Source: Pseudomonadales bacterium
GTDB taxonomy: Bacteria > Pseudomonadota > Gammaproteobacteria > Pseudomonadales > Azotimanducaceae
Assembly (NCBI GenBank): GCA_022827905.1
Contig: JAJEIQ010000033.1
Location: 1 to 42,408, forward strand
Reading direction: 5' to 3'
Length of the DNA: 42,408 bases
The position numbers were made by a program, and so were the translations under genes. This document shows positions 23,764 to 40,687 of the stretch, in pieces. The notes below the pieces were generated by a model that did not search any database, had not been told where the DNA came from, and saw nothing but the letters and a program-made list of their open reading frames with translations. The stretch's first letter is position 1. Each line of letters begins with the position of its first letter.

Positions 23764-23857
23764 TTGCGCACCCGGACCTGTTGCGCACCCGGACCGAGGG
23801 CGTCCCGCCCTCGATGGGATTTCACGGTTCAATGCCGGGGGCAGGATGCCCGTTCCG
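23764..23857. repeat. Direct repeat plus REP copies between iscR and the crotonase gene
   Basis: The 15-mer TTGCGCACCCGGACC occurs at 23764-23778 and again at 23781-23795, the second copy running straight into a REP element with GGAC foot (23791-23814). A degenerate, inverted REP-like hairpin with GGGCA/TGCCC arms lies at about 23835-23857. They occupy much of the 192-bp divergent gap. The GGAC foot is otherwise seen only next to the RAYT gene. Confidence 0.75.
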
Positions 23858-33551: not shown

Positions 33552-33770
33552 GGAGCGAGGGCGTCCCGCCCTCGATGGGATCCCCCTCCGGAGCGAGGGC
33601 GTCCCGCCCTCGATGGGTTCCCCCTCCGGAGCGAGGGCGTCCCGCCCTCGATGGGTTCCCCCGAATCAGTTCGAGGGCAAGATGCCCTCGCTCCGGGATC
33701 CCCCTCCGGATCGAGGGCGTCCCGCCCTCGAATAGGCCGCTTGTGGTGGAATTCGAGCGAGGGCAAGATG
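33552..33770. repeat. Cluster of five REP elements after der
   Basis: Copies at 33552-33575, 33590-33613 and 33628-33651 (direct, 38 bp apart), 33671-33694 (inverted, A/T variant arms and TCT loop) and 33708-33732 (foot GGAT). A truncated copy, CGAGCGAGGGCAAGATG, is at 33754-33770. The region fills the der-tannase gap of 259 bp. The spacers GATCCCCCTCC or GTTCCCCCTCC between the direct copies are also repeated. Confidence 0.9.
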
Positions 33771-35366: not shown

Positions 35367-35999
35367 ATGGCAGATGAACTGGTATTCCACACCCACCCCC
35401 AATCCCGGGGCCGCATCGCGCGCTGGATGCTTGAGGAGGTGGGTGTCCCGTACCGGGTGGAGACTTGGCAGTACGGCGACGAAATGAAGTCGGAGCGCTA
35501 TCGACGGATCAACCCGATGGGCAAGGTGCCCGCCATTTGCCACGGCGAGCAGGTGGTCATCGAGACGGCGGCCATCTGCGCCTACTTGGCCGACGCCTTC
35601 CCGGAAGCGGGCCTCGCCCCGCCCGTCGGTCAGCGGGGGGCGTACTACCGATGGCTCTTCTTCGGCGCCGGTCCCCTTGAGGCGGCGGTCACCAACCGCT
35701 CCATCGGCGTGGAGGTAAGCGCCGATCACGAGTTGATGCTGGGCTACGGCAACCTCGGGACAGTGATGGACGTGCTAGAGGCTGAATTGACGGCCCGGGA
35801 CTACATCGCGGGCGACCGTTTCACCGCTGCGGACGTGTACGTGGGGGCGCACATCACTTGGGGCCTCAACATGATGGAGACCTTGGAGAAGCGGCCGGCC
35901 TTCATCGACTACTCCGAGCGGGTAAGTGCCCGGCCAGCCCAGCAGCGGGCCACCGCGCTCGACGATCAGTTGAGCGCGGACATGGATAGTCCCGGCTAA
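35367..35999 (+). CDS. Glutathione S-transferase family protein
   Basis: 210 residues from ATG 35367 with GGAGGAG six bases upstream. N-terminal thioredoxin-like domain with 'HPQSRGRIARWMLEEVG' (catalytic Ser or nearby residue), N-P-M-G-K-V-P (cis-Pro) and E-T-A-A-I-C-A-Y-L-A-D (glutathione gamma-glutamyl contact), then an all-helical C-terminal domain with F-T-A-A-D-V-Y-V-G. Role in conjugating or dehalogenating aromatic substrates is plausible given the esterase next to it. Its stop overlaps that of the convergent peptidase gene. Confidence 0.9.
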   Translation: MADELVFHTHPQSRGRIARWMLEEVGVPYRVETWQYGDEMKSERYRRINPMGKVPAICHGEQVVIETAAICAYLADAFPEAGLAPPVGQRGAYYRWLFFGAGPLEAAVTNRSIGVEVSADHELMLGYGNLGTVMDVLEAELTARDYIAGDRFTAADVYVGAHITWGLNMMETLEKRPAFIDYSERVSARPAQQRATALDDQLSADMDSPG

Positions 36000-36796
36000 C
36001 CGCCGTTCAGGATTGCCATCACGCGCACCGGGTCCACCCGGTTGCCGTTCAGGCTGACCGACCAGTGCAGGTGGGCGCCGGTGACCCGTCCGGTGGCGCC
36101 CACCTCGCCGATCATCTGGCCGCGCGCCACCTCATCGCCCTCCGCCACCGAGATGGCGTTCATGTGGCAGTACATGGTCACCAAGCCTTGGCCGTGGTCG
36201 AGGAAGACGGTCTTGCCGTTGAAGAAGAGTTCCCCGGTCAACACCACCGCGCCCGGTGCCGGGGCGTGGATGGGCGTGCCGGTGTGGGCGGCGAGGTCGA
36301 GGCCGGAGTGCGGATTGCGCGGCTGGCCGTTCAGCACCCGCCGATGGCCGAAGACGCTTGACACCCGGCCGGCAACCGGCTGCACGAAAGGAGAGAGGTC
36401 GAGCGGGCGCGCCGTGAAGCGCCGGTACTGGGCCAACTGCCGGGCAGTCTCCTCGCGAATGCGCGCCAGATCGCTCTCCGGAGGATTCACCAAGCGCTCG
36501 TTGGCAATGGTCAGATGCTCTTCGGGATACTGCTTCGCAATGACTTGAAAGCGATGGCTTTGGCTGCCGGCGGTGCCCATAAGCTGCAGTTCGTACTCCC
36601 CAGGCTCAGTGCTTATGTGCAGGCCCACAAAGGCTTGGCCCCGGTGGATCATCACCGGACGCTCCTGGAACAGCGCCGTGTCGTAGCCAGTCGGCATCGG
36701 GAATAGATAAACCCCGCCGGGGACCGCTTCGGCAACCGCCCAACAAGAGGCTGCGGTGCAGAACAAGGCCGCTACGGCGGCAATGAGCCGGCCCAT
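35996..36796 (-). CDS. Periplasmic M23-family peptidoglycan endopeptidase
   Basis: 266 residues from ATG 36796. Signal peptide about residues 1-24. The C-terminal M23 (lytic endopeptidase) fold is complete: H-S-G-L-D-L with H-x3-D zinc ligands, H-G-Q-G-L-V-T-M-Y-C-H-M, and the catalytic H-L-H-W near the end. An N-terminal ~100-residue beta domain (GVYLFPMPTGYD onward) resembles the NlpD/LppM-like prefix of stand-alone M23 enzymes. Would cleave peptidoglycan cross-links or activate amidases. An upstream in-frame ATG at 36820 is less suitable for signal cleavage. Confidence 0.9.
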   Translation of the reverse strand: MGRLIAAVAALFCTAASCWAVAEAVPGGVYLFPMPTGYDTALFQERPVMIHRGQAFVGLHISTEPGEYELQLMGTAGSQSHRFQVIAKQYPEEHLTIANERLVNPPESDLARIREETARQLAQYRRFTARPLDLSPFVQPVAGRVSSVFGHRRVLNGQPRNPHSGLDLAAHTGTPIHAPAPGAVVLTGELFFNGKTVFLDHGQGLVTMYCHMNAISVAEGDEVARGQMIGEVGATGRVTGAHLHWSVSLNGNRVDPVRVMAILNGG

Positions 36797-36882
36797 GGAA
36801 CTCCCCTCTAGTCTGGCCACTGCCGCGATATAGACGACAGGTGCAAAGAATGCAAGACGCTCTCGCTTCGACCGGGCTCCCC

Positions 36883-37083
36883 GGACCGAGGGCGTCCCGC
36901 CCTCGATTGGAGTTGGGGGAATCCGTTCGAGCGGGCTCCCCGGACCGAGGGCGTCCCGCCCTCGATTGGAGTTGAGGGAATCCGTTCGAGCGGGCTCCCC
37001 GGACCGAGGGCGTCCCGCCCTCGATTGGGGTTGGGGGAATCCGTTCGAGCGGGCTCCCCGGACCGAGGGCGTCCCGCCCTCGA
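36883..37083 (+). repeat. Four-copy tandem REP array, 59-bp period, upstream of the RAYT gene
   Basis: Four REP copies with GGAC foot start at 36883, 36942, 37001 and 37060, exactly 59 bp apart, all in the same orientation and with identical hairpins. The 35-bp spacers are near identical and share ATTGG, a G-rich run, GAATCCGTTCGAGCGGGCTCCCC. The 393-bp stretch between 36797 and 37189 contains this array and no gene. Together with the copies after the RAYT gene it forms the flank of a REP-transposase unit. Confidence 0.92.
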
Positions 37084-37114
37084 TTGGAGTTGAGAGAATC
37101 CGTTTCGCAAAGCG

Positions 37115-37136
37115 ATGCTTCAGGATTCCTGAGCAT
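37115..37136. other. Imperfect hairpin before the RAYT start
   Basis: ATGCTTCAGGA and TTCCTGAGCAT form arms of about ten base pairs with one unpaired T, 53-75 bp before the RAYT ATG, between the tandem array and the gene. It may be the 5' leader structure or a diverged element end; its role is not clear. Confidence 0.35.
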
Positions 37137-37189
37137 GACTGGAGTAGACTGCCGCACCGCGAAGTAGCCGAACCGGCGCGTCACCGATC

Positions 37190-37798
37190 ATGAAGCAAGC
37201 CAGCCAAGTTCGGGAGGTCACTCCCGCCAGCCAATACCATCGAACCCACCTGCCTCACTTTGAGGCGGGCGAAGTACCCCAGCACATCTGCTTCCGGCTG
37301 GCCGACAGCCTTCCCCAAGTGGTCCTTAAGCGTTTGATTTCGGAGTTGACCGGTCTGCCCGAAGCAGAGCGCGCTGCTGAAATGCGCGAACGGATGGAAG
37401 CGGTGCTTGATCGAGGTTACGGCGCCTGCTGGCTGCGCCGCCCTCAGATCACCGCGCTGGTCCGGGAGGCGCTTCTGTATTTTGACCACGCTAGGTACAT
37501 CCTGCACGCATGGGTAATCATGCCCAATCACGTCCATGCGCTAATGACGGCACTGAGCGGGAGACACTTGTCAGCCATCCTGCACTCTTGGAAGTCCTTT
37601 ACCGCGAATTCGGCAAACCGACACTTGGGGCGCGAAGGCAAGTTTTGGCAGGTGGACTACTTTGATCGGGTCATGCGCGACGAAGCGCATTTTGCGGCAA
37701 CGGTGGATTACATTCATTGGAACCCGGTTAAGGCTGGATTGTGCGCTAAGCCGGAGGACTGGCCTTGGAGCAGTTTCAGTAGGACACAACAGGGTTAG
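37190..37798 (+). CDS. REP-associated tyrosine transposase (RAYT, TnpA-REP family)
   Basis: 202 residues, complete. Y1-transposase fold of the HUH kind: the metal-binding H-x-H is H114-V-H116 in MPNHVHALM, preceded by 'RYILHAWVI'; the candidate catalytic tyrosine is Tyr157 in VDYFDRVMRDE, with D-Y-I-H-W-N-P-V-K-A-G-L near the C-terminus as family signature. RAYTs bind and nick the foot of REP hairpins and are thought to disperse them. Seven GGAC-type REP copies flank the gene, four upstream and three downstream. No terminal repeats of a classical IS surround it, as usual for domesticated RAYTs. The gene shows no frameshift, so it may be active. Confidence 0.92.
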   Translation: MKQASQVREVTPASQYHRTHLPHFEAGEVPQHICFRLADSLPQVVLKRLISELTGLPEAERAAEMRERMEAVLDRGYGACWLRRPQITALVREALLYFDHARYILHAWVIMPNHVHALMTALSGRHLSAILHSWKSFTANSANRHLGREGKFWQVDYFDRVMRDEAHFAATVDYIHWNPVKAGLCAKPEDWPWSSFSRTQQG

Positions 37799-37818
37799 AG
37801 GGCATTCCCCGATTCGTT

Positions 37819-37941
37819 TCGAGGGCGGGACGCCCTCGGTCCGGAGAAAGGCCCCGAACAAAGCTTGGACCGAGGGCGTCCCGCCCTCGATTCGGGGAGT
37901 GGCCCCGAACAAAGCTCGGACCGAGGGCGTCCCGCCCTCGA
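37819..37941. repeat. Three REP elements downstream of the RAYT gene
   Basis: Copies at 37819-37842 (inverted), 37867-37890 and 37918-37941 (direct), all with GGAC foot. The last two are 51 bp apart and share the spacer GGCCCCGAACAAAGC. They lie between the RAYT stop and the end of the convergent hydrolase gene. Confidence 0.92.
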
Positions 37942-37947
37942 TTGAGG

Positions 37948-38901
37948 TTATGAGCGTTGCGGGTTGGCCATTAGGGTTGTCCAGAAGCGCATCATGTCTT
38001 CGTGGAAGTGCTTGGCTTGGTCGTCGGTGGTGCCGATGTGGGCGCCGCGGCGGCCGTAGCCTGCTCGGAAGCTGCGGATCATTAGGTCGCGTTCGCTGAG
38101 TGCCGGGTCGGCCTGGCCGGTCCAGGGATCGATTAGGGCGCCGTTCTCGGCGATGTAGGTGGTTGGCGCGTCCGGGGCCACCGAGGCGTCGGCGACCATC
38201 TCTATGGGCGTGTCGCGGTCGAAGCTGTGGTGGGCGCCGGCGAAGATGCGGCAACTGGCCTCGCCGCCGCACAGGCGAATGGCCTGCATGTGGCCCTGCA
38301 CCTGCTGCGGCAGGCACCATTCGTCGCGGTCGCCGATCACCGAGCGCACGATGGCGCGGCCCACTTCCGGGCGCTTGAACTGCTGGCCGCACCAAGGGTA
38401 GGCGGCGTACACGCCCGCGAAGGGTTGGGCGCCGTCCTTGACCAGCCTTGCCATGCAGGCGGCGGACAGGATGGCGGAGCCGCCCCGGCTGTGGCCCTGT
38501 GCGCCGATGCGCATGCCGTCGATGTCGGCGCGGGCCGCCAACAGCTCAGCGGTCGCCAAGACGTCCCAGGCGCTGGCGGCGAACGAGTACTGGGCTTGGT
38601 TGGCCACGGTGGAGGTGACGCCCCGAGTACCAAACGGGTCGATGACGCAGGCGGCGATCTGCGCTTCGGTTAGATGCACGGCCTTGGCGACGTGGGATGG
38701 GGCGACGCCCAAGCTGCCCGGCACCACGATCACCACGGGCCAAGGCCCGTCGCCTTGGGGCAGAAACAGATTGCCGAAGATCTCCGTCGCGGGCATGTCT
38801 TCGGGTTCCGAAATCGCTTGGTGGAAGCCGGTCGGATTGGCGGTGGGAATGCGCAGCACCTCGCCGCGAATGCCGTTATCTAGGGTTTTGGGTGTGTCCA
38901 T
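37948..38901 (-). CDS. Dienelactone-hydrolase-like alpha/beta hydrolase
   Basis: 317 residues, no signal peptide. Alpha/beta-hydrolase elements: 'VVIVVPGSLG' oxyanion region, nucleophile in G-H-S-R-G-G at about residue 140, an acidic residue in I-G-D-R-D-E-W, and His in A-H-H-S-F-D-R, in the order of the dienelactone hydrolase family. Those enzymes open lactones formed in aromatic ring cleavage, but this family is broad. Third gene of the minus run after the transporter and the monooxygenase, with a REP cluster between it and the monooxygenase. Confidence 0.85.
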   Translation of the reverse strand: MDTPKTLDNGIRGEVLRIPTANPTGFHQAISEPEDMPATEIFGNLFLPQGDGPWPVVIVVPGSLGVAPSHVAKAVHLTEAQIAACVIDPFGTRGVTSTVANQAQYSFAASAWDVLATAELLAARADIDGMRIGAQGHSRGGSAILSAACMARLVKDGAQPFAGVYAAYPWCGQQFKRPEVGRAIVRSVIGDRDEWCLPQQVQGHMQAIRLCGGEASCRIFAGAHHSFDRDTPIEMVADASVAPDAPTTYIAENGALIDPWTGQADPALSERDLMIRSFRAGYGRRGAHIGTTDDQAKHFHEDMMRFWTTLMANPQRS

Positions 38902-38920: not shown

Positions 38921-39104
38921 CAGTTCTCATTTTGGCCGGAGCGAGGGCGTCCCGCCTTCGACAGCATCCCGTGATACAGTTTCGAGGGCAAGACGCCCTC
39001 GCTCCAAGATCACACCCGGAGCGAGGGCGTCCCGCCCTCGATTGGATCCCCGGCTTTAGTTCGAGGGCAAGATGCCCTCGCTCCGGCCAGAATGAGAATT
39101 GCTG
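38921..39104. repeat. Alternating REP cluster bounded by long inverted repeats
   Basis: Four copies in strict alternation: 38938-38961 (direct, one arm mismatch), 38982-39005 (inverted, TCT loop, G-T pair), 39018-39041 (direct), 39061-39084 (inverted, A/T variant). Outside them, 38921-38950 and 39075-39104 form an imperfect inverted repeat of about 26 bp that includes TTCTCATT, TGGCCGGAGCGAGGG on both sides. Arrangement as in BIMEs. The last copy is translated as the C-terminus of the FAD monooxygenase. Confidence 0.9.
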
Positions 39105-40687
39105 TAGTGGGTTAAGTGTAGAAGGTTGGCGAGTTGGGCGATCAGATCATCGAGGCCGTGACTCTCGTCGGTGTGCCCGAACACGTAGCGATCGGGGCGC
39201 ACGATGGCGGCGGCGGCATCGTCGAACAGCCGGTCGAACTTGCCCTGGGTGGCATCCAGGCCATCCAACGTGACGCGGCGGGCACCCAATCGGTCGAGTG
39301 CGGCCTCTGACGCGGGGCTGACCTTGAGGGCGTCCGCGTCCCGGGCCACCACCGCGAAGCCCGGACCCAAGCCCTCGTCAAGGCGAAACTCGTGGCCGTT
39401 GCCGTCACGCACCATGGGCTGGCTGAACAGGTAGCCGGTGGAGCCGTGGTCGCTGAGTTGGCCGAGCACGATCACCCCGTCACGCAGCGGCGGCATCTCC
39501 CGGCCTTGGCCGTATCCGGAGGATTGCTGCTTGTCGGGCACTTGCGGGCGCGGTTCGCCCTTGCGCTCGGCGTCTTCCACGGCAGCCAGGTGCTCCATCA
39601 ACTGGCCGATGGCCACCGCCCAGTCCACCAGGTCGGTGGCGTGGGCCAGCCGTTCCGCTTGGTAGCTTTCGAGCAGCGCGGAACTGGCTTCGCCAGACAT
39701 CACCAGCGGCAGCTTCCAGGCCAGGTTGATGGCGTCGCGCATGCCGGCGTTCATGCCTTGGCCTAAGAAAGGCGGCGTCTGGTGGGCGGCATCGCCGGCG
39801 ATGAAGATGTTGCCGCTGCGCCACCGGTCCGCCACCGCGGCATGGAACTGGTACACCGCCGCCCGCCGAATGTCGTAGGTGCCGCGCGCCGCCCAGGGAT
39901 CGATGAGGCTCTGGATGCGCTCCGGTTCGAGCATCTCCTCCCAGGTCTCGCCGGGATTGAGCTTGAACTCCCAGCGCCGGTAGGGGTCCTTGGTGCGCAC
40001 GTAGGTGGACAGCCGGTCCGGGTCGCAAACCTGCATGGTGTTGCGGTCCAGCGGGTGGTCGGGGTGGGTGACGATGTCCACCACCAGCCAGTCGTGGTCG
40101 TAGCCGAGATCATGCCAGCCGCTGCCGATGCTGCGGCGCACGAAGCTCGATGCGCCGTCGCAGCCGATCAGGTAGCGGGCGGAAAGCTGGAAGGCTTCGC
40201 CGGAACCCAACTGCCGTCCATCGATGACCACCCGGCCGTCGGCATCGCTGATGGCAGTGGCCTCGGCGCCGATGTGGGCGGTGACGTTCGGTTCGGCCAG
40301 CGCGGTTTCGCGCAGAAAGCCCTCCAGTTCGGGCTGGTCGAACATGTTGAAGCTCTGCCAGCCGTTGCTGTTGAATGGCGTGGGCACTTGCTTGAAGAGC
40401 CACTCCCGCTTGGAATTGCCGAAGCCGACGTGTTCGCCGGGGCGCAAGGGCTGCAGCAGGCTGGCGACCTGCTCGCCCAAGCCAAGCCGCTGGAAGCCGC
40501 GGATGATCTCGCCATCCAAGGCCACCGCCCGGGGCAGCTTGTACACCGCTTCATCCCGTTCGATGACCACCACCGTCAACCCGGCACGGGCCAGAAACAG
40601 GGCGGCGGTGGCGCCGACCGGCCCCATGCCGATGATGGCGATGTCGAAGTCAGCGGATGCCGTTGCCGTCTGGTGCTGGCTTGTCAT
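39056..40687 (-). CDS. FAD-dependent aromatic monooxygenase (MhpA-like)
   Basis: 543 residues from ATG 40687 with AGGAGA seven bases upstream. Flavoprotein hydroxylase of the phenol/3-hydroxyphenylpropionate class: GMGPVGATAALFLARAGL (dinucleotide-binding), D-G fingerprint in Y-L-I-G-C-D-G-A-S-S-F-V-R-R, and G-D-A-A-H-Q-T-P-P-F-L-G-Q-G (FAD ribityl motif). It would hydroxylate a phenolic ring, in keeping with the hydrolase and esterase nearby. The final nine residues R-S-E-G-I-L-P-S-N are encoded by a REP copy, so the original C-terminus has been replaced or extended. The exact substrate is not predictable. Confidence 0.88.
   Translation of the reverse strand: MTSQHQTATASADFDIAIIGMGPVGATAALFLARAGLTVVVIERDEAVYKLPRAVALDGEIIRGFQRLGLGEQVASLLQPLRPGEHVGFGNSKREWLFKQVPTPFNSNGWQSFNMFDQPELEGFLRETALAEPNVTAHIGAEATAISDADGRVVIDGRQLGSGEAFQLSARYLIGCDGASSFVRRSIGSGWHDLGYDHDWLVVDIVTHPDHPLDRNTMQVCDPDRLSTYVRTKDPYRRWEFKLNPGETWEEMLEPERIQSLIDPWAARGTYDIRRAAVYQFHAAVADRWRSGNIFIAGDAAHQTPPFLGQGMNAGMRDAINLAWKLPLVMSGEASSALLESYQAERLAHATDLVDWAVAIGQLMEHLAAVEDAERKGEPRPQVPDKQQSSGYGQGREMPPLRDGVIVLGQLSDHGSTGYLFSQPMVRDGNGHEFRLDEGLGPGFAVVARDADALKVSPASEAALDRLGARRVTLDGLDATQGKFDRLFDDAAAAIVRPDRYVFGHTDESHGLDDLIAQLANLLHLTHYSNSHSGRSEGILPSN

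What the first reader, a model, noticed from the sequence alone, without database searches (positions are those of the whole stretch)
36883..37941. A complete REP/RAYT unit: transposase gene bracketed by seven GGAC-foot hairpins
The RAYT gene (37190-37798) with intact H-x-H and candidate Tyr157 has four REP copies upstream and three downstream, and all seven share the foot GGAC. Copies elsewhere in the window have GGAG (one GGAT, and one GGAC at 23791). RAYTs are known to recognise a short foot tetranucleotide of their REP hairpins, so the foot switch may mark two element subfamilies, with the local transposase matched to GGAC and the GGAG copies mobilised by a second RAYT or an earlier form.
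Basis: partly seen in the sequence, partly recalled or inferred. Interest (0 to 1): 0.8.

Follow-up and report, generated by a model that had tools for sequence, protein, structure and literature searches.

The report
Hairpin repeats switched beside their transposase
A bacterial repeat-spreading gene is surrounded by copies of its repeat that differ by one base from most other copies in the genome, and two related species keep the usual base at the same place, so this looks like the first step by which such gene-and-repeat pairs change their recognition tag.

Summary
A RAYT gene (37190-37798) is flanked by four upstream and three downstream hairpins, all with foot GGAC. In the whole genome the same exact hairpin carries GGAG 265 times, GGAC 16 times (seven at the RAYT), GGAA 14 and GGAT 12: 7 of 7 against 9 of 300. 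No second RAYT was found in the assembly, and GGAC copies elsewhere are no commoner than GGAA or GGAT, so no GGAC subfamily has spread. Two same-genus species carry the orthologous RAYT at the same place, with GGAG at all four readable feet; the tree makes GGAC most simply the derived state. The best reading is one REP/RAYT system early in what Nunvar et al. 2013 call an orthoswitch: copies next to the RAYT have changed while the genome-wide population keeps the old foot. Across 45 related RAYTs base 4 of the foot needs at least 10 changes, base 2 only 4. The published guide model predicts that GGAC would redirect cleavage from CT to GT; nothing here proves that.

The parts
37190..37798 (+). 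RAYT gene (TnpAREP-type Y1 HUH transposase, 202 aa; His114, His116, Tyr174; foot-contact segment W153-R163)
   Evidence: NF047646 E 3.6e-30, Y1_Tnp, alignment with 4er8, positions; dN/dS against the two orthologues 0.165 and 0.187
36883..36905 (+). REP-like hairpin, foot GGAC, upstream copy 1
36942..36964 (+). REP-like hairpin, foot GGAC, upstream copy 2
37001..37023 (+). REP-like hairpin, foot GGAC, upstream copy 3
37060..37082 (+). REP-like hairpin, foot GGAC, upstream copy 4; corresponding copy in G002 has GGAG
36867..37102 (+). tandem array of four 59-bp units that carry upstream copies 1-4
37820..37842 (-). REP-like hairpin, foot GGAC, inverted; left half of a feet-inward doublet; corresponding copy in G008 has GGAG
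37867..37889 (+). REP-like hairpin, foot GGAC; right half of the doublet (24-nt spacer)
37918..37940 (+). REP-like hairpin, foot GGAC; corresponding copy in G008 has GGAG
23791..23813 (+). single REP-like hairpin with foot GGAC, 13 kb from the RAYT
33552..33730 (.). cluster of five REP-like hairpins, four with foot GGAG and one with GGAT (33708)
38983..39084 (.). three REP-like hairpins with foot GGAG between the hydrolase-like gene (37948-38901) and the FAD-monooxygenase-like gene (39056-40687), the last inside the end of the latter

Best explanation
This is one REP/RAYT system at an early stage of an orthoswitch. The ancestor of this species and two sister species had a RAYT between an M23 peptidase gene and a dienelactone-hydrolase-like gene, flanked by hairpins with foot GGAG, and the same hairpins were scattered through the genome. 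In this lineage the fourth foot base became C in every copy linked to the RAYT, by mutation followed by tandem duplication and copy-to-copy replacement around the gene, while most dispersed copies kept GGAG. The enzyme is under purifying selection and probably tolerates both feet, because base 4 appears to act as a DNA guide for choosing the cleavage site rather than as a fixed protein contact. Shown: one RAYT found, foot counts, GGAG at the orthologous locus, the tree, low dN/dS. Inferred: the replacement process, tolerance of both feet, and that the RAYT itself drove it.
For: 7 of 7 RAYT-linked feet are GGAC against 9 of 300 elsewhere. Orthologous RAYTs at the same locus have GGAG at all 4 readable feet: 2 upstream in G002, 2 downstream in G008. 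The window RAYT is sister to those two (support 99/75) and the next row, L110, is GGAG (89/81). One RAYT found. Pairwise dN/dS of the three RAYTs 0.139-0.187. Base 4 needs at least 10 changes among 45 RAYTs, and GGAC needs 5 changes, at least 4 forced by well-supported branches. Of the 16 exact GGAC copies, four lie in feet-inward doublets, and these are two doublets with GGAC at both feet, at the RAYT and on C77, with related spacers. At the C77 site G004 and G007 have no hairpin of this family and G008 and G002 have GGAG doublets. Published concept: orthoswitch, PMC3686654 section 8.
Against: The second half of an orthoswitch, spread of the new form, is not seen: GGAC elsewhere (9) is no commoner than GGAA (14) or GGAT (12). 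In vitro work on two of three enzymes goes against tolerance: E. coli TnpAREP accepts no GTAG change, and S. maltophilia TnpAREP binds but does not cleave GTAC (PMC8266576, passages). A tandem array of four GGAC copies also exists at C81, with no Y1 transposase found in the assembly outside the window, so local duplication alone can make GGAC clusters. G007 has 11 GGAC of 21 copies and no RAYT match, and G008 has 8 GGAC of 43, none of them at its RAYT. Only one flank is readable in each orthologue: the G002 downstream flank is poor sequence and the G008 upstream flank is cut by the contig end. The branch that makes G002 and G008 sisters has an SH-aLRT of only 75.
Confidence: 0.6

Rival explanations
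1. Neutral local history only: one flanking copy mutated to GGAC and was multiplied by ordinary tandem duplication and gene conversion between neighbouring copies; the RAYT had no part in it and the foot has no functional meaning.
For: 59-bp and 51-bp repeats at the RAYT; a separate GGAC tandem array with its own spacers at C81; GGAC elsewhere at the same level as GGAA and GGAT.
Against: Upstream and downstream copies have different spacers and one is inverted, so simple tandem duplication does not join them; three orthologous positions changed to the same base (3 of 3 against 9 of 300, p 4.8e-5); both feet of the distant C77 doublet are GGAC too. Conversion could still explain all of this.
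Confidence: 0.3
2. The RAYT has changed specificity and now prefers GGAC; the flanking feet follow the enzyme (protein-led co-evolution).
For: The window RAYT has 21 residues that differ from both orthologues where those agree, against 4 in G002 and 11 in G008 (a 22nd entry there is a gap at the end); one, Ala155Val, lies inside the segment aligned with the GTAG-contacting residues of E. coli TnpAREP.
Against: The residues named in PMC6006769 for this segment (W94, Q95, E100, H101, R104 in E. coli; passages) have the same equivalents in all three orthologues; the other five GGAC RAYTs have K or R at the place of Val155, as do 17 of 25 GGAG ones; L126 (GGAC) and L134 (GGAG) share the segment exactly; 17 of the 21 changes lie in residues 1-101.
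Confidence: 0.15
3. Two REP subfamilies served by two RAYTs, GGAC by the local one and GGAG by a second.
For: Two foot forms exist in one genome. The assembly is 81 contigs and 96.8% complete.
Against: One RAYT by NF047646 and one Y1 transposase by PF01797 at E up to 10; syntenic orthologues of this same RAYT have GGAG; GGAC has not spread.
Confidence: 0.04
4. Assembly artefact: collapsed or chimeric repeats at the RAYT made GGAC look uniform.
For: The genome is a draft; G002 shows corrupted sequence at the corresponding downstream flank.
Against: The seven copies lie on one contig in four kinds of spacer context, spacers differ at several bases between tandem units, and GGAC also occurs at five other places in the genome.
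Confidence: 0.04

Closest known systems
Orthoswitch of REP/RAYT orthogroups in Pseudomonas and Stenotrophomonas (Nunvar et al. 2013, PMC3686654; passages, section 8 read)
   Same: Syntenic orthologous RAYTs flanked by different REP variants; one RAYT of the orthogroup, two REP forms in the same genome.
   Different: Here only the fourth foot base changed, the hairpin body is identical, the feet are GGAG/GGAC rather than GTAG/GTGG, and the new form has not multiplied.
REPtrons with TnpAREP (E. coli, S. maltophilia, Marinomonas; PMC8266576, passages)
   Same: RAYT gene bordered by hairpins with a 5' tetranucleotide next to the stem; short perfect stem with a 3-nt loop, as described there for the S. 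maltophilia REP.
   Different: Foot GGAN instead of GTAG; no biochemistry was seen for this enzyme; the residue equivalent to E. coli H101 is Arg160.
REPINs (Bertels and Rainey 2011, PMC3116915; only search listings were seen)
   Same: Many copies form inverted doublets.
   Different: Several spacer lengths and families occur here; orientation and ends of published REPINs were not compared.

Membership tests
RAYT / TnpAREP protein family | Match to the curated REP-associated tyrosine transposase model above its cut-off | tested here: met
   NF047646, 104.8 bits against cut-off 80
RAYT / TnpAREP protein family | HUH histidines and a single catalytic tyrosine in Y-I-x-x-N-P | tested here: met
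   H114, H116, Y174 by alignment and position; activity not tested
RAYT / TnpAREP protein family | Gene flanked on both sides by the repeat that is dispersed in the genome | tested here: met
RAYT / TnpAREP protein family | Cleavage of single-stranded REP by the protein | not testable with these tools
   needs purified protein
Canonical REP (GTRG-tagged) | 5' tetranucleotide GTAG or GTGG | tested here: not met
   feet are GGAG, GGAC, GGAA, GGAT; so these are REP-like hairpins, not GTRG REPs by the definition quoted
Canonical REP (GTRG-tagged) | Short palindrome in high copy number | tested here: met
   307 exact-pattern matches with a GGAN foot in 4.44 Mb (265 + 16 + 26)
Orthoswitch | Syntenic orthologous RAYT flanked by a different REP variant in a relative | tested here: met
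   G002, G008
Orthoswitch | New variant then multiplies through the genome | tested here: not met
   9 GGAC of 300 elsewhere, no more than GGAA or GGAT; so it is put forward only as a possible first step, not filed as a completed orthoswitch
IS200/IS605 insertion sequence | Several copies of the transposase gene in the genome | tested here: not met
   one Y1 transposase found in the genome; TnpB was not searched for

The most novel reading that the evidence does not exclude
The foot has two separately evolving halves. Base 2 (G or T) is read by the protein through the residues equivalent to E. coli 98 and 101 and changes rarely, while base 4 is read by DNA as a cleavage guide and is free to change; a switch such as GGAG to GGAC then redirects cutting from CT to GT without a change of enzyme, and this locus is that switch caught before the new form spreads.
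Probability: 0.25. Interest if true: 0.65.

Novelty: new variant of a known kind. Interest (0 to 1): 0.45.

Why it matters
How RAYTs and their repeats change partners is open: Nunvar et al. 2013 wrote that they could only speculate about the molecular mechanism of the orthoswitch. Here the body of the repeat is unchanged, one foot base differs, and sister species keep the other base at the same locus, so the question reduces to comparing two single-base substrates with two closely related enzymes. The wider set (feet GGAG, GGAC, GGAA, GTAA, GTAC, GTAG, GTGG, GTGA in related RAYTs) is a natural series for working out which foot base is read by protein and which by DNA.

Tried and rejected
Second RAYT: looked for with NF047646 and PF01797 in the own genome, one match each, the same gene. 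GGAC as a genome-wide subfamily: rejected by the GGAA and GGAT control. Cleavage-site compensation: the guide model of PMC8266576 predicts GT sites beside GGAC feet. Among 118 distinct copies read in this genome (91 GGAG, 16 GGAC, 7 GGAA, 4 GGAT; not all copies, and partly chosen for doublets), CT within 12 nt 3' of the hairpin occurs in 55% of GGAG and 6% of GGAC copies, and GT in 30% and 50%. But the 16 are not independent, and the three GGAG copies in G002 and G008 that correspond to GGAC positions lack the CT too, so I draw nothing from it. Protein-led switch: Val155 is not shared by the five other GGAC RAYTs. Base-2 code: in the table of 45, GT feet have H101 in 9 and R101 in 3, GG feet R101 in 24 and T101 in 9, never H. 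Independent contrasts: residue 98 goes the same way in 3 of 3 and residue 101 in 2 of 3, the third a tie; sign tests p 0.25 and 0.5. It is a lead only.

The foot table used 45 of 80 loci (window plus the 79); 35 were dropped because no foot or an unclear foot was read, the protein was partial, or only one copy was seen. The choice was mine, made by eye. Many of the dropped rows look like GGAG; two dropped single-copy readings would not fit the base-2 code (L186, GTGG with F at 101; L177, GGAT with H at 101). Some kept loci have mixed feet (for instance L125 with GGAA, L119, L121 and L122 with GTAC, L184 with GGAG). In one search the motif of L166 was picked wrongly by my pattern; one search uses the right one, and the contrasts are not altered, since the wrong letters fall in the same classes. 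Pattern counts are of exact bodies; one hairpin at C18:50676-50702 is counted on both strands.

A wrong name mended: I had taken the C77 site for a trpE-trpG spacer (so called in my notes); the scan shows an ion-channel gene and a class-I glutamine amidotransferase gene.

Full report
WHAT IS THERE. The gene at 37190-37798 encodes a 202-residue RAYT: NCBIfam NF047646 at E 3.6e-30 and 104.8 bits against a cut-off of 80, Pfam Y1_Tnp at E 1.6e-6. The one solved relative found at E up to 1 is E. coli TnpAREP, 4er8 (E 1.5e-10). Neighbours are an M23 peptidase (35996-36820, -) and a dienelactone-hydrolase-like gene (37948-38901, -).

HAIRPINS AND FEET. Seven copies of GGAC-CGAGGGCGTCCCGCCCTCG flank the gene, four upstream and three downstream, one of them inverted. 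The upstream four are a 59-bp tandem repeat; the downstream ones show a 51-bp repeat. In the own genome (4.44 Mb, 81 contigs, 96.8% complete) exact-pattern counts are GGAG 265, GGAC 16, GGAA 14, GGAT 12. Seven of the 16 GGAC lie at the RAYT; the other nine are at 23791 in the window, four in a tandem array on C81, two on C77, and one each on C44 and C48. So 7 of 7 against 9 of 300, p 2.4e-10; if the RAYT copies count as three units, p 4.8e-5. Away from the RAYT, GGAC is no commoner than the other two variants.

NO SECOND RAYT FOUND. NF047646 gave one match in the own genome (3 candidates scored) and PF01797 one match at E up to 10. Both are this gene. The assembly is incomplete, so a missing second copy is not excluded.

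SISTER SPECIES. Among 97 genomes searched with the RAYT protein (the own one included), 54 have a match, but only two beyond the own genome are close: G002 (86%) and G008 (83%), both of the same genus; the next best is 44%. In both the RAYT sits in the same place: after the M23 gene in G002 and before the hydrolase gene in both. All four readable feet there are GGAG: two upstream in G002 and two downstream in G008. The G002 downstream flank is poor sequence and the G008 upstream flank is cut by the contig end. Two further species of the genus, G004 and G007, have a TonB-dependent-receptor gene (Pfam PF00593) between the M23 and hydrolase genes and no RAYT match. Counts of the hairpin with foot GGAN in the eight other genus members searched: G002 237, G004 87, G008 43 (32 GGAG, 8 GGAC, 3 GGAT), G007 21 (11 GGAC, 6 GGAT, 4 GGAG), and 0 in four. 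In a sample of 61 genomes of the family, GGAG and GGAC forms occur only in the own genome and G008 (G002, G004 and G007 were not in that sample). G007, rich in GGAC without a RAYT match, does not fit a simple story.

POLARITY AND SELECTION. In a tree of 45 RAYTs built with the foot-contact motif masked, the window RAYT is sister to the two orthologues (99/75), and the next row, a Phycisphaerae RAYT at 58% identity, has foot GGAG (89/81). GGAC is therefore most simply derived in this lineage. Pairwise dN/dS among the three RAYTs is 0.139 to 0.187, so the gene looks maintained.

FEET ACROSS THE CLADE. Related RAYTs from Planctomycetota, Verrucomicrobiota, Acidobacteriota, Pseudomonadota and others have flanking hairpins with feet GGAG, GGAC, GGAA, GTAA, GTAC, GTAG, GTGG and GTGA. 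On the tree base 4 needs at least 10 changes, base 2 four and base 3 four; the GGAC state needs 5 changes, at least 4 forced by well-supported branches. In the table of 45, RAYTs with feet GTAG, GTGG, GTAC and GTGA carry His at the position of E. coli H101 (9 of 9), GTAA ones carry Arg there with Thr or Cys at 98 (3 of 3), and GG-footed ones carry Arg (24) or Thr (9) at 101 (33 of 33). Independent contrasts are too few for significance, and two rows dropped as single-copy readings would not fit (Tried and rejected). Base 4 shows no such tie: L126 (GGAC) and L134 (GGAG) have the same eleven residues.

DOUBLETS AND MOVEMENT. Many copies form feet-inward doublets (part of the genome read). Of the 16 exact GGAC copies four lie in such doublets, and in both doublets both feet are GGAC: 37820/37867 at the RAYT and C77:38461/38507. 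Their 23-24 nt spacers are related, but GGAG doublets with related spacers exist as well, so descent of one from the other is not shown. The C77 doublet lies, with one more GGAG hairpin, between an ion-transport channel gene and a class-I glutamine amidotransferase gene. There G004 has 20 nt between the anchors and no hairpin, G007 none of this family, G008 a GGAG doublet and G002 GGAG doublets, one with a broken hairpin: the site has gained, lost or exchanged hairpins within the genus.

MECHANISM. In the single-stranded model of TnpAREP the foot is a guide that selects the cleavage dinucleotide by base complementarity; in the Marinomonas enzyme GTAC substrates were cut at GA or GT instead of CT or CA, while E. 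coli TnpAREP tolerates no change and the S. maltophilia enzyme binds but does not cut GTAC (PMC8266576, passages). If the window enzyme is of the flexible kind, base 4 can drift, and the copies beside the gene could be homogenised by tandem duplication, conversion or RAYT action favoured by closeness to the gene, as in the model of Nunvar et al. (PMC3686654 section 8). These last steps are inference. A search for a GT signal beside the GGAC copies gave nothing usable.

COMPARISON WITH THE LITERATURE. 'Orthoswitch' was found in one paper of the library; its tables show orthologous RAYTs whose REPs differ in the stem and in some groups in GTAG against GTGG. GGAG and GGAC at the start of a word were not found in the text of four REP/RAYT papers, nor GGAG in a whole-word search together with RAYT or REPIN; figures and supplements were not seen. 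So the event is a new instance of a known process, in a RAYT clade with GGAN feet that I did not find described in these searches.

VERDICT. The two-transposase reading is not supported. An early, local, foot-only orthoswitch is the best reading; a purely neutral local history is the main rival.

Noticed in passing
L110:3507-6953, L111:3-3443, L112:4048-7779, L130:4383-8480: In four RAYT relatives of three phyla the RAYT and its hairpins lie in frame inside one open frame of 1147-1366 aa (L111 begins at the contig end) that also matches the anti-phage-associated DUF1156 family: Pfam DUF1156 in 3 of 4, NF042963 in 4 of 4 but far below its cut-off; the RAYT part of L130 is also just under the NF047646 cut-off. 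The length upstream of the RAYT differs, and hairpins read as short peptide repeats. A paper search for DUF1156 or the full RAYT name listed 15 of 17 papers, none with both terms.
   Followed up: partly
RAYT segment W153-R163 and its equivalents in L108-L186: Foot base 2 goes with the residues at E. coli positions 98 and 101: GG feet with R or T at 101 (33 of 33), GTAG/GTGG/GTAC/GTGA with H (9 of 9), GTAA with R and T or C at 98 (3 of 3), in the 45 loci kept.
   Followed up: partly
L104 and L105 (G004, G007), corresponding to window 36800-37950: Where this genome has the RAYT unit, two same-genus species have a TonB-dependent receptor gene; REP-like hairpins stand beside the M23 gene in both.
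   Followed up: partly
L093:4706-4910 (G000 C81): A head-to-tail array of one GGAG and four GGAC hairpins with its own spacers, away from the RAYT.
   Followed up: no
G007: A same-genus genome with 21 exact hairpins, 11 of them GGAC and 6 GGAT, and no RAYT match: possibly a decaying population after RAYT loss.
   Followed up: no
L187-L202 (G004): Sixteen feet-inward GGAG doublets, chosen for their even spacing, with spacers of 31-33 nt in a few spacer families, in a genome without a RAYT match.
   Followed up: partly
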